Origin: Candidatus Gastranaerophilales bacterium
GTDB taxonomy: Bacteria > Cyanobacteriota > Vampirovibrionia > Gastranaerophilales > Gastranaerophilaceae
Assembly (NCBI GenBank): GCA_944323955.1
Contig: CALUUK010000002.1
Location: 62,001-126,000 of the forward strand
Reading direction: 5' to 3'
Length of the DNA stretch: 64,000 nt
Positions 5,289-33,500 of this stretch are shown here, one piece after another (position 1 is the stretch's first letter; each line of letters starts with the position of its first letter). The notes under the pieces are model-generated. The model saw only the letters and a program-made list of their open reading frames with translations, did not search any database and was not told where the DNA came from. The translations under genes and the position numbers were made by a program.

Positions 5289-6023
5289 TTAGTATCCCAA
5301 AGAAAGTCCTGCACAGATATTTATGGATTGACCCGTTATGGATTTTGCATTATCCGAGATTAAATATTCACAAACAGATGCAATTTCCTCCGGTGTAACA
5401 AATCTTCTTTGCGGGATTGTTTCAATAATTTCATTGCGTGAAAAATCCTCTTGAAGATTTTCATTATTGATAAGCTCTGTATCTACCCAGCCCGGGTTAA
5501 TTATATTAACGGTTATATTATCCTGTGCCAGTTCAAGCGCCAGAGCTTTTGTCATTCCGATTAAAGAGGCTTTTGTCATGGAATATAATGATGCATTTGC
5601 TTCTCCCATAACTCCTGAGATAGAACCTATATTTATAATTCTGCCCCACTTTTGACTTTTCATATGCGATGCAAAGGATTTAATAAGAATTAAAGGTGCT
5701 GCACAATTCAGCATTAAAGAGTCATAGATGTCTTTGTTATTATAATTTTCAATAATCGAGTAAATATAGCTTCCCGCATTATTTATCAGAATATCAATAT
5801 TTGTATTTAATTTTTTATGAAAGTCTTCAATATTCTCAAATTTAGATAAATCGCAAGGGATAAATCCTGCGAAATTATTCTCATTGCATAGATTTTTAAG
5901 TTTTTCACCGTATCTTCCGGTTATAAAAACATTGTATTTACAGGCAAAATGTTTTGCAATCGCAAGTCCTATTCCTTGCGATGAACCTGTTATAAGAATA
6001 TTTTTTTTATCCCTGATCAACAT
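5289..6023 (-). CDS. short-chain dehydrogenase/reductase (FabG-like)
   Basis: This NAD(P)-dependent oxidoreductase belongs to the classical SDR family. The 244-aa product has the Rossmann glycine motif ILITGSSQGIGLAIAKHF near the N-terminus, INNAG at about 85, catalytic Ser in GSISGV and the YSMTK (YxxxK) pair at about 147, then the NIINPGWVDTELI segment and a C-terminal GQSINICAGLSLGY typical of FabG relatives. The substrate cannot be told. Its start overlaps the 108-aa gene upstream by 17 nt, making a co-translated unit with that gene and the HIT gene. Confidence 0.88.
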   Translation of the reverse strand: MLIRDKKNILITGSSQGIGLAIAKHFACKYNVFITGRYGEKLKNLCNENNFAGFIPCDLSKFENIEDFHKKLNTNIDILINNAGSYIYSIIENYNNKDIYDSLMLNCAAPLILIKSFASHMKSQKWGRIINIGSISGVMGEANASLYSMTKASLIGMTKALALELAQDNITVNIINPGWVDTELINNENLQEDFSRNEIIETIPQRRFVTPEEIASVCEYLISDNAKSITGQSINICAGLSLGY

Positions 6024-6333
6024 TTGTAATAAAACTCATTAATGCCATTATAAAAGAATTTACTAAATCTTTTTTTTCATTATCATTCAGTGTTTTAATA
6101 AATTCAATACAGGTATGAAGATTATAATTTTCGTCATACCATCTTTTATACCCCGGAGGCGCATTTTCATTAAGGTGTACAATTTTCTCATCAAAATTGC
6201 TTCCGTATTTTTCCATAATTATCTGAAGGAAATCCTGCGCGATAAGGTCAATATGCTCGTCATTAACTTGTTCTAATAAAGCTAATAATGATTTCAATTC
6301 GGGATATTTATCGTACCAACGGCTGTATTTCAT
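6007..6333 (-). CDS. 108-aa protein with two internal repeats, unknown function
   Basis: The product is built from two similar ~43-residue units. The first begins YSRWYDKYPELKSLLALLEQ and the second YKRWYDENYNLHTCIEFIKT; each continues into an amphipathic helix (DLIAQDFLQIIMEKYG and DLVNSFIMALMSFI). It has no signal peptide or cysteine pair. It sits between the HIT gene (2-bp gap) and the SDR gene (17-nt overlap), so it is certainly translated as part of this unit. AGGTTAATT upstream of the ATG can serve as ribosome-binding site. The family is not recognised. Confidence 0.7.
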   Translation of the reverse strand: MKYSRWYDKYPELKSLLALLEQVNDEHIDLIAQDFLQIIMEKYGSNFDEKIVHLNENAPPGYKRWYDENYNLHTCIEFIKTLNDNEKKDLVNSFIMALMSFITNVDQG

Positions 6334-6335
6334 AA

Positions 6336-6668
6336 TTAACCTGCCGGCCAGTTAAAGTTTCTGCCTGCCATAACATGTACATGTATGTGAAAGACGGTTT
6401 GCCCCGCGCTTTCACCTGTATTTATTACGGTTCTGTATTCTTTAATACCGAGTTTTTCCGCAATTTTGGGAACAGCGGAAAATATATTACCGAATGCTTC
6501 TTCTGAATCAATATCATTTAAAGATGCATAGTGTTTTTTAGGGATAACAAGAAAATGTACCGGTGCCTGAGGATTTAAATCATTAAATGCGACAACATTT
6601 TCATCTTCATAAATTAAATCTGCCGGAATTTCTTTATTTGCTATTTTACAAAATATACAATCTGCCAT
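6336..6668 (-). CDS. hinT: HIT-family nucleotide hydrolase (HinT-like)
   Basis: This is a purine nucleoside phosphoramidase-type histidine triad protein. The 110-aa product starts CIFCKIANKEIPADLIYEDE (the CxxC HinT signature), continues VVAFNDLNPQAPVHFLVIPKKHY and carries the catalytic triad HIHVHVMAGRNFNW. It has the usual HinT length. AAGAGG lies 8 nt before the ATG. It is the first gene of the unit hinT, 108-aa gene, SDR, and diverges from mnmE with an 87-bp shared promoter region. Confidence 0.95.
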   Translation of the reverse strand: MADCIFCKIANKEIPADLIYEDENVVAFNDLNPQAPVHFLVIPKKHYASLNDIDSEEAFGNIFSAVPKIAEKLGIKEYRTVINTGESAGQTVFHIHVHVMAGRNFNWPAG

Positions 6669-13378: not shown

Positions 13379-13501
13379 ATAAACACTCCTTTTTTTCTTC
13401 TAAAACCCGACAAGGAAAAAGTTGACTGTTTTTAAAAAAATAGTAAAGAAGTATTACGGTAAGAATTTTCTTTTTAAAAGACAATGTGTTACTTTATAAA
13501 T

Positions 13502-14488
13502 ATGTCAAATATAAATTGGAATCAGCTCTCAAATAATTATAATAATTTTAACGGAATGAATACAAAAAATGTTCAAAATACTCCGCTGAATCAAGCCAAT
13601 GCAAATACGCAGCAGCAAAGAACTCCGCTTGAAGTTTTATTTCCAAAATATATTTCTCAGCTCAGTCAAACGGTTAATGAACTTGCAATGCTAAATCAAC
13701 AGCAAATGACTAATATGATTAGAGACTTGCTTCAATTCCCGCGAAATTTTGAACAGCTTTTAACTCAATTGGCGGTTAATCCCGGTGAAATAAATCAAAA
13801 AATAGCAGTTTTACTTCTGGCTTCAAATATGAATATAACTCAATTGTCCGCTCTTTTGAAAAACAGTTCCAAAACGGCAATGACTAATTTATATCAAATG
13901 CTTGCGCAGTTTAATATAACCGGCATGAGCCTGAAAGATGAACAGATAGGGCAATTAACAAAGTTAATTTCTTTTATTGCCGCTTCATCATCCAGTGATG
14001 TTCAAACTCTTAGAACTACAATGCTTATGTATCTTCCCTGGCTTCCGTTAACGGATCCTGAGATGTTCAAGTTGGAATTTGACAAAAAAACTTCCGATGA
14101 CGGACTTTCTGCTGACGATAGTATAACTGTTTTAATTTCTACGGAAAATTACGGTAATATAAAGGCTGATATCTATAAAACGGACGCCGATGGAATTAAG
14201 ATAGAATTTATTTCTTCCGAAACTTTTCCTCTTGAAGAATTTAAAATTCTTATGAAAGAAGAGAGTAAAAAATACAGTATTAATATAAATTTTGACCTAT
14301 TTAAAAAAGAATCGTTTAATAAAAAAAAGAATGAGAAAGCTCAAACGAAGATATTTATGAATACAAGCCCAAAAGTTAATCCGTTTTTGCTTTTAATATC
14401 CAATGCTTTAATAAAAAATATTCATATAATAGACAGCAGGGAAAATCTGCATGAACTAAGAAAAGAGAAAATAAATGGCGAAAGTTAA
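13502..14488 (+). CDS. 328-aa protein with a FliK-like C-terminal domain
   Basis: The N-terminal 45 residues are Asn/Gln-rich. A helical region follows (FPKYISQLSQTVNELAML, MTNMIRDLLQFPRNFEQLL). After a Leu/Pro turn (LMYLPWLPLTD), a compact domain of about 90 residues is seen: SITVLISTENYGNIKADIYK, GIKIEFISSETFPLEEF, KEESKKYSININF. This strand-strand-helix order resembles the C-terminal hook-length-control domain of FliK. Residue identity is low, so this is a tentative call. The start at 13502 (MSNINW) is preferred to 13484, but neither has a good ribosome-binding site. The 3' end overlaps radA by 14 nt. No flagellar genes adjoin it. Confidence 0.55.
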   Translation: MSNINWNQLSNNYNNFNGMNTKNVQNTPLNQANANTQQQRTPLEVLFPKYISQLSQTVNELAMLNQQQMTNMIRDLLQFPRNFEQLLTQLAVNPGEINQKIAVLLLASNMNITQLSALLKNSSKTAMTNLYQMLAQFNITGMSLKDEQIGQLTKLISFIAASSSSDVQTLRTTMLMYLPWLPLTDPEMFKLEFDKKTSDDGLSADDSITVLISTENYGNIKADIYKTDADGIKIEFISSETFPLEEFKILMKEESKKYSININFDLFKKESFNKKKNEKAQTKIFMNTSPKVNPFLLLISNALIKNIHIIDSRENLHELRKEKINGES

Positions 14489-32849: not shown

Positions 32850-33500
32850 ATGAGATATATGATAAGAAAAGTTAAACAATTTTTTAGAAAACTATTTAAA
32901 CCTGTAGATAACCCCGGTGAACAATGTGTCTTGGATCAGGTAAATTCTTTATATAATTCACTTAACGACGACATAATACATATATCTTTAGGTGATGACT
33001 TGATACCTTTTATAGAAATGATTATAAACACGACTTTTAATGCAAGAACAGCAATAAAAAATCAAACAGGATTTATCATGCCGGCAATAAAATATTCATC
33101 TGATTCAACTCTTCAGGAAAATGAAATATCAGTCATGATAAGAGGGAACATCGCTTTTAATAAATTTGTAATTCCGAATAAAGAGAATATTGAAAAAGAA
33201 ATTAAAGATACACTGGATGAACTGTATTTAAATAACCTTTCTGATATATTTTCTAATGAAATGGCTGAAAAATATATAGATGCGGTGATAGTTAAAAATA
33301 GAAAATTAGTGGCAGATATAAGCTATTATTTTTCAACTGTTGAAATAAAATATATTTTAAAAGAGTTATTGGAAAATGGTATATCTATATATAATATTGA
33401 TTTGATTTTTGAAAAAATATCCGAACAAATTTTTATGCATAATAATTCCCGAAAACATGACATTTATTCTATTTCAAAAAAAATAATAAAGGGTATGTAA
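32850..33500 (+). CDS. soluble FlhA C-terminal-like protein (FHIPEP family fragment)
   Basis: The 216-aa protein has no membrane segment but resembles the cytosolic domain of FlhA/InvA export-gate proteins. IIHISLGDDLIPFIEMI corresponds to the L.LG..LIPLVD segment. TGFIMPAIKYSSDSTLQENE followed by ISVMIRG corresponds to GIV.PP.RIRDN..L.P..Y.I..KG. VEIKYILKELLENGISIYNI corresponds to the L..VLQ.LL.E.VSIRDL segment. Order and spacing are right. The N-terminal eight-helix channel of FlhA is absent and no flagellar or type III genes adjoin it. It may bind export-type chaperones or be a domesticated relic. The start could be Met1 or Met4; no ribosome-binding site is obvious. Confidence 0.65.
   Translation: MRYMIRKVKQFFRKLFKPVDNPGEQCVLDQVNSLYNSLNDDIIHISLGDDLIPFIEMIINTTFNARTAIKNQTGFIMPAIKYSSDSTLQENEISVMIRGNIAFNKFVIPNKENIEKEIKDTLDELYLNNLSDIFSNEMAEKYIDAVIVKNRKLVADISYYFSTVEIKYILKELLENGISIYNIDLIFEKISEQIFMHNNSRKHDIYSISKKIIKGM

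What the first reader, a model, noticed from the sequence alone, without database searches (positions are those of the whole stretch)
32850..33500. Orphan soluble FlhA-type cytosolic domain
The 216-aa protein follows the FlhA/InvA C-terminal domain in three separate blocks but has no membrane channel and no flagellar neighbours. FlhA's cytosolic part binds chaperone-substrate pairs. A free-standing version could be a regulator of a distant flagellar or type III-like system, or a domain put to a new use. Together with the FliK-like gene at 13502 it hints at scattered export-apparatus relatives.
Basis: partly seen in the sequence, partly recalled or inferred. Interest (0 to 1): 0.6.

Follow-up and report, generated by a model that had tools for sequence, protein, structure and literature searches.

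The report
Channel-less partner of a type III exporter
A gut bacterium without flagellin makes a small cut-down copy of the inner sorting ring of a flagellum-type protein exporter, one of several such copies in its order, which suggests that an overlooked second export machine is tuned by spare ring parts.

Summary
Window 32850-33500 (+) encodes 216 aa (probable start Met4, 32859). It matches FHIPEP/FlhA (Pfam 5.8e-14), and its AlphaFold model (pLDDT 87.6) superposes on FlhA cytosolic domains (Z 16.2). It has no membrane channel.

The finding becomes more specific. The protein keeps D1 and D3 (linker-docking domains) but lacks D2 and D4, the chaperone clamp, so the chaperone-docking idea is weakened. 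It is a patchy, fast-evolving but selected family: 23 of 383 genomes of its family, dN/dS 0.29-0.41, open in all 23. It is closer to a second FlhA (FlhA2) than to flagellar FlhA in 23 of 23 copies scored.

That FlhA2 belongs to a complete, flagellum-like but non-flagellar export apparatus carried across Gastranaerophilales. 32 of 36 flagellin-positive relatives have two or more FliP; none of 62 flagellin-negative ones has more than one. The window genome has only this second system and no flagellin. The FliK-like gene at 13484 also belongs to it by synteny.

Best guess: an accessory partner of the FlhA2 ring that cannot dock chaperones. Identity and ancestry are well shown; the mechanism is inferred.

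The parts
32850..33500 (+). ORF of 216 aa, FlhA-C (D1+D3) paralog; probable true start 32859 (Met4), 213 aa
32859..32897 (+). N-terminal basic amphipathic stretch (residues 4-16), pattern M[LI]xx[IL]Kx[LI][FL] in most orthologs; possible membrane-surface anchor (inferred)
   Evidence: mean net charge +3.0 in the first 12 residues of 23 members against -0.37 in control 12-mers; amphipathic moment only modestly raised (0.50 against 0.33)
32928..32966 (+). Linker-like helix (residues 27-39) with an aromatic at residue 35 in 12 of 12 orthologs; near the position of Salmonella FlhA linker Trp-354 (correspondence inferred)
32967..33179 (+). Domain D1 (residues 40-110), family-specific GxDL (in the place of FlhA GYXLI) and QENE motifs
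33165..33188 (+). Junction where FlhA carries domain D2 (about 45 residues); D2 absent in all orthologs aligned
33180..33497 (+). Domain D3 (residues 111-216); D4 absent after it
13484..14488 (+). The FliK name itself is not supported by any profile
   Evidence: no Pfam or NCBIfam match that names it

Best explanation
It is a channel-less paralog of FlhA2, the export-gate ring protein of a second, non-flagellar type III export apparatus of Gastranaerophilales, reduced to domains D1 and D3 with an N-terminal basic helix. Shown: fold, missing domains, closeness to FlhA2 rather than flagellar FlhA, selection, presence of the second apparatus in the same genome. Inferred: it works at the cytosolic FlhA2 ring. 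It keeps the two domains onto which a neighbouring subunit's linker docks, and lacks the two that bind and clamp chaperones. It would therefore sit in or beside the ring, probably held at the membrane by its N-terminal helix, as a subunit or cap that cannot load cargo, lowering or redirecting export through that machine.
For: Fold and domain content. D2/D4 missing. Published FlhA work: the chaperone dimple lies at D1/D2 with Asp-456, Phe-459 and most other residues in D2; the D2/D4 cleft opens and closes; the linker of one subunit docks on D1 and D3 of the next (PMC10965912, PMC9431611, passages only). Closer to FlhA2 than to flagellar FlhA in 23 of 23 copies scored. The tree places all paralogs among FlhA2, away from flagellar FlhA (97.3/97). 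Second system in the same genome. A related FlhA-C paralog is fused to a domain of the second system's FliG-like protein in 7 of 7 distinct proteins tested. The family occurs both with (15) and without (8) flagellin, so it does not need a flagellum. dN/dS 0.29-0.41.
Against: No experiment and no complex prediction. The gene is not in the export operon, and no neighbour is shared between genera. Patchy: 23 of 383 genomes, 3 of 41 in its own genus. Evolves much faster than its neighbour (46% against 93% identity for SecD), which a ring subunit need not do. D3 is no closer than D1 to FlhA2 (24% against 31% mean identity; against the 490-aa class the order is reversed, 31% against 25%), so ring packing through D3 gets no clear support. 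GYXLI is altered to GxDL. 15 of 23 carriers do have flagellin, more than expected (Fisher p 0.016, uncorrected for kinship), so a flagellar link is not excluded.
Confidence: 0.42

Rival explanations
1. The domain has been put to a new use outside export: a membrane-surface adaptor, for instance for type IV pili or chemotaxis, using the FlhA D1-D3 scaffold.
For: No shared neighbours with export genes; fast evolution; FlhA-type export proteins control twitching in the non-flagellated Lysobacter OH11 (PMC7277350, abstract); one copy lies near CheW-like and response-regulator genes (L078; names read from sequence).
Against: A sister paralog is fused to the FliG-like domain of the second export system; one copy adjoins the 490-aa FlhA-C gene and one lies about 1.1 kb from another FlhA-C paralog (L070, L078).
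Confidence: 0.24
2. It is a soluble chaperone-substrate docking platform or decoy.
For: FlhA-C fold; FlhA-C is the known chaperone docking site (PMC10965912, passages).
Against: D2 and D4 are missing, and with them Asp-456, Phe-459 and most dimple residues named in PMC10965912. The 490-aa soluble paralog, which keeps D1-D4 (Z 24.5 over 319 residues), is the better candidate for that role.
Confidence: 0.1
3. It regulates the true flagellum.
For: 15 of 23 carriers have flagellin; in one genus it lies near gyrB with FliD or flagellin genes within 5 kb (L072, L074, L077; names read from sequence).
Against: 8 of 23 carriers, the window genome included, have no flagellin. 23 of 23 copies score higher against FlhA2 than flagellar FlhA. 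The gyrB place is seen in one genus only.
Confidence: 0.1
4. A duplicated fragment without a role, in slow decay.
For: Patchy distribution, fast evolution.
Against: All 23 copies open (the stops printed for G203 lie upstream of its start); dN/dS about 0.3; invariant GxDL and QENE-type motifs; conserved N-terminal pattern.
Confidence: 0.14

Closest known systems
FlhA/SctV cytosolic domain (FHIPEP family; FlhA-C of Salmonella and B. subtilis, MxiA, CdsV)
   Same: D1 and D3 fold, Z 12.7-16.2; Pfam FHIPEP above cut-off
   Different: No membrane part, no D2, no D4; GYXLI replaced by GxDL; not in an export operon
490-aa soluble FlhA-C paralog of Gastranaerophilales (this genome, G000:C4:57833-58837)
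   Same: Channel-less FlhA-C paralog, closer to FlhA2 than to flagellar FlhA
   Different: Keeps D1-D4, has an N-terminal alpha/beta domain and helices, and is widespread rather than patchy
FlhA2 of the second export apparatus (G000:C1:170400-172376)
   Same: Probable parental gate family
   Different: Full-length 701 aa with membrane channel
Flagellar-type export genes of the non-flagellated Lysobacter enzymogenes OH11 (PMC7277350, abstract and outline read)
   Same: Export apparatus kept in a bacterium without flagella and functional there
   Different: No channel-less FlhA-C paralog is mentioned in the abstract or outline; the rest was not read

Membership tests
FlhA/SctV export gate (FHIPEP) | Sequence above the curated Pfam cut-off | tested here: met
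   52 bits against 29.1
FlhA/SctV export gate (FHIPEP) | NCBIfam full-length FlhA or SctV cut-off | tested here: not met
   56.1 against 772.1; 17.1 against 692.25
FlhA/SctV export gate (FHIPEP) | N-terminal multi-pass membrane domain | tested here: not met
   216 aa, match begins at profile position 288; hydropathy
FlhA/SctV export gate (FHIPEP) | Cytosolic domains D1 and D3 | tested here: met
   Z 15.8, rmsd 1.9, chain 359-582 of 6ch1
FlhA/SctV export gate (FHIPEP) | Cytosolic domain D2 with most of the chaperone dimple | tested here: not met
   Gap in all orthologs aligned; residues named from PMC10965912
FlhA/SctV export gate (FHIPEP) | Cytosolic domain D4 | tested here: not met
   Protein ends at the end of D3
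FlhA/SctV export gate (FHIPEP) | GYXLI motif | tested here: not met
   GxDL in place of GYXL: G in 12 of 12, Y in 0 of 12
FlhA/SctV export gate (FHIPEP) | Nonameric ring formation | not testable with these tools
   Needs complex prediction or biochemistry
Bacterial flagellum (for the second system in this genome) | Flagellin | tested here: not met
   0 matches in own genome
Bacterial flagellum (for the second system in this genome) | Export gate, ATPase, MS-ring and rod proteins | tested here: met
Injectisome (for the second system in this genome) | Secretin, needle, translocators | not tested
   No search made

The most novel reading that the evidence does not exclude
Gastranaerophilales run a second, rod-bearing but filament-less type III export machine whose FlhA ring is not made of one protein. 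Channel-less FlhA-C paralogs (490-aa D1-D4, 216-aa D1-D3, and membrane-anchored forms fused to a FliG-like domain) enter or cap the ring as exchangeable subunits, so that cargo choice is set by ring composition. To my knowledge that would be the first export gate with a mixed, tunable ring.
Probability: 0.2. Interest if true: 0.85.

Novelty: new variant of a known kind. Interest (0 to 1): 0.57.

Why it matters
FlhA-type rings are treated as homo-nonamers fixed to a membrane channel. A selected family of channel-less, clamp-less copies, related to the ring of a second export machine, gives natural separation-of-function variants: the domain pair D1-D3 without the chaperone clamp. It also points to a conserved, apparently filament-less export apparatus in gut bacteria that earlier genome papers, in the passages read, took for partial flagellar gene sets (PMC3787301, PMC4040986, PMC5877343).

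Tried and rejected
Rejected: truncated pseudogene (23 of 23 copies open; dN/dS about 0.3). An early notebook entry of mine that the G203 copy carries two stops was wrong: they lie upstream of its start. Rejected as proof: naming the 13484 gene FliK; no profile supports it, only conservation and synteny do tie it to the second system. Weak: the amphipathic moment of the N-terminal helix (0.50 against 0.33; individual shuffles mostly not significant). Unresolved: whether the immediate parent is FlhA2 or the 490-aa paralog (18 of 23 copies score best against the latter, 5 against FlhA2; tree support low at that node); the grouping with the 509-aa paralog (97/100) may be long-branch attraction. 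The tree used 61 of 105 distinct hits: 490-aa class thinned to 18, two fragments dropped, the G158 copy not in the set, one flagellar FlhA as outgroup. Comparing D1 and D3 conservation gave no clear support for ring packing. dS is above 1 in all pairs, so the ratios are rough. Of 30 secD loci fetched to compare the site in the genus, my script recognised the gene in 7 only (2 with the 216-aa gene, 3 with a recA-like gene upstream, 1 with other ORFs, 1 with none listed); the other 23 were not read. Literature searches for a soluble or channel-less FlhA paralog found nothing; searches on Gastranaerophilales, Vampirovibrionia or Melainabacteria with flagella, type III secretion or FlhA gave papers of which I read passages only. 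Absence from print is therefore not shown.

Full report
What is there. The ORF 32850-33500 (+) encodes 216 aa. Orthologs begin at the residue equivalent to Met4 (11 of 12), so the likely start is 32859. Pfam FHIPEP matches at 5.8e-14 in two stretches, NCBIfam FlhA at 2e-15. AlphaFold on 19 sequences (12 of the family, 7 of the 490-aa class) gave pLDDT 87.6 and pTM 0.76. The model matches FlhA/SctV cytosolic domains and nothing else at that level: Foldseek 1.6e-9 for 6ch1, VIA-align Z 16.2 for 3mix and 15.8 for 6ch1, rmsd 1.9 over 173 residues, covering Salmonella residues 359-582. The organism is a Candidatus Gastranaerophilales member by its nearest named relatives, mostly rumen and gut metagenome assemblies.

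What it lacks. Between D1 and D3, FlhA has about 45 more residues, domain D2; the family has none. It also ends with D3, without D4. Published work (passages read: PMC9431611, PMC10965912) places the chaperone dimple at the D1/D2 interface, with Asp-456, Phe-459 and most other named residues in D2 (the assignment of each residue to D2 rests partly on the gap in the alignment), the open-close cleft between D2 and D4, and the docking of one subunit's linker on D1 and D3 of the next. So the protein keeps the linker-docking domains and loses the chaperone clamp. GYXLI, a motif needed for domain motion, reads GxDL here (G 12 of 12).

Is it real and selected? A profile of five orthologs found 23 copies of this class (E up to 1.1e-41) among 383 genomes of the family, in seven genera, 3 of 41 genomes in its own genus (counts by genus). 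The cut at 1.1e-41 is mine, set at the gap where other architectures begin (2.1e-31 and weaker). In a 286-genome sample of the order no copy of this length appeared outside the family, the only outside match being a 338-aa frame (the output does not say how many of the 286 lie outside the family). All 23 are open; two stops printed for G203 lie upstream of its start. dN/dS is 0.30, 0.29 and 0.41 for three pairs, with dS above 1, against 0.01 for SecD and 0.06 for SecF. Identity between the window and G038 is 46% for this protein and 93% for SecD. It is constrained but fast.

Context in the window. Upstream are MarR-, HlyD- and MFS-type efflux genes, downstream SecD and SecF (names read from sequence). 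G038 shares the place before secD; of seven secD loci read, two carry the gene, three have a recA-like gene there, one has other ORFs and one none (23 further loci were fetched but not read). In other genera the gene lies elsewhere: beside gyrB in genus g54, while in G009 of the same genus it adjoins the 490-aa FlhA-C gene. No partner gene is shared across genera.

The second export system. The window genome has one full FlhA, a 487-aa channel-less FlhA-C, a 509-aa form with a hydrophobic stretch, and the 216-aa protein. It has no flagellin, like 39 of the 41 genomes of its genus. Yet it has FlgF/G-like (two), FlgB, FlgC, a lytic transglycosylase, FliE, FliF, a FliG-like protein, FliH, FlhA and FliI in one cluster, FliMN, FliO, FliP, FliQ and FliR in another, and FlhB. 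The FliG-like protein has only a weak MgtE_N match (0.0009, below cut-off) and no NCBIfam match; its name is mine. Only two proteins with the rod/hook C-terminal domain were found. Among 98 relatives, 32 of 36 flagellin-positive genomes have two or more FliP, and 0 of 62 flagellin-negative ones do (56 have one, 6 none). Full-length FlhA falls into two main score classes, about 860-890 bits and about 670-740 bits, with a few flagellin-positive genomes outside the order between them (G088, G093); the high class is seen in flagellin-positive genomes only. In G056 both clusters are seen whole: FliPQR-FlhB-FlhA of the flagellum, and FlgC-transglycosylase-FliE-FliF-FliG-like-FliH-FlhA2-FliI (names by order and sequence, the FlhA and FliP by profile). 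So flagellin-negative genomes do not just keep a broken flagellum; they keep a second system that flagellated relatives have besides their flagellum. Di Rienzi 2013 lists two flhA among 13 shared flagellar genes (PMC3787301, passages), and Soo 2014 speaks of gene subsets that would not make a flagellum (PMC4040986, passages). I saw no description of two systems in those passages, but did not read the papers whole.

Ancestry. Profiles of the C-terminal parts of flagellar FlhA (8), FlhA2 (15) and the 490-aa class (20) were scored on 23 family members: all 23 prefer FlhA2 to flagellar FlhA; 18 prefer the 490-aa profile, 5 FlhA2. In a tree of 61 sequences the family is one clade (75/74), and all paralogs lie among FlhA2, away from the single flagellar outgroup (97.3/97). 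Seven 590-595-aa paralogs carry an N-terminal domain homologous to the second system's FliG-like protein (E 7e-16 to 6.5e-13, 7 of 7): a fusion that ties FlhA-C paralogs to that system. Model residues 156-487 of the 490-aa class superpose on a complete D1-D4 FlhA-C (Z 24.5; pLDDT 71.7).

The FliK-like gene. The gene at 13484-14488 is found in 35 of 35 genus genomes searched and in 16 of 23 others. In 9 of those 16 it is on the same contig as FlhA2, 6.8-7.8 kb away; in the other 7 it lies on a different contig from FlhA2 or no FlhA2 place was listed. No profile names it FliK.

Mechanism. Most likely the protein acts on the FlhA2 ring as a non-docking subunit, cap or linker-binding modulator, perhaps held at the membrane by its basic N-terminal helix (mean charge +3.0 in 23 members). 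This is inference from domain content. Against it: D3 is not better conserved than D1 relative to FlhA2, the gene is patchy and unlinked, and 15 of 23 carriers have flagellin. A new use outside export, a flagellar role, a docking decoy and decay remain as rivals with lower weight.

Verdict. The thing is a new variant of a known kind: a channel-less and clamp-less FlhA-C paralog related to a second, apparently non-flagellar export system.

Noticed in passing
G000:C1:163400-173800 (L036, L037), G000:C4:28200-31700 (L126), G000:C1:44685-45710: Second, flagellum-like export apparatus with rod proteins and a lytic transglycosylase in a genome without flagellin; 32 of 36 flagellin-positive and 0 of 62 flagellin-negative relatives have two or more FliP.
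   Followed up: partly
13484-14488: FliK-like gene: conserved in 35 of 35 genus genomes, 6.8-7.8 kb from FlhA2 in 9 of 16 genomes of other families; no known family names it.
   Followed up: partly
L038:11795-13258 (-), G000:C4: 487-aa soluble FlhA-C paralog with all of D1-D4, an N-terminal alpha/beta domain and helices; the class is widespread in the order.
   Followed up: partly
L011:1096-2877 and six similar loci (L062-L064, L066-L068): 590-595-aa paralogs fusing the second system's FliG-like N-terminal domain, a hydrophobic stretch and an FlhA-C domain.
   Followed up: partly
L039:9472-11001 (-), G000:C9: 509-aa protein with a hydrophobic stretch and a divergent FlhA-C domain (Pfam 3.4e-15).
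   Followed up: no
L078:4156-4872 and 5992-6639: Two different FlhA-C paralogs about 1.1 kb apart, beside response-regulator and CheW-like genes (names read from sequence, no profile run).
   Followed up: no
L096, L101, L103, L104, L105: Homologs of the second system's FliG-like protein lie within about 5 kb of the 490-aa FlhA-C gene.
   Followed up: no
L072, L074, L077: In genus g54 the 216-aa gene lies next to gyrB with FliD or flagellin genes (read from sequence) within 5 kb on the far side.
   Followed up: no
L046, L049, L051, L053: A conserved 76-aa small protein with a hydrophobic start lies close to the 216-aa family gene in four genus g55 genomes (in L053 it is the end of a 92-aa frame).
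   Followed up: no
L119: A contig labelled Muribaculaceae carries a 490-aa FlhA-C gene of Gastranaerophilales type; probably a binning error.
   Followed up: no
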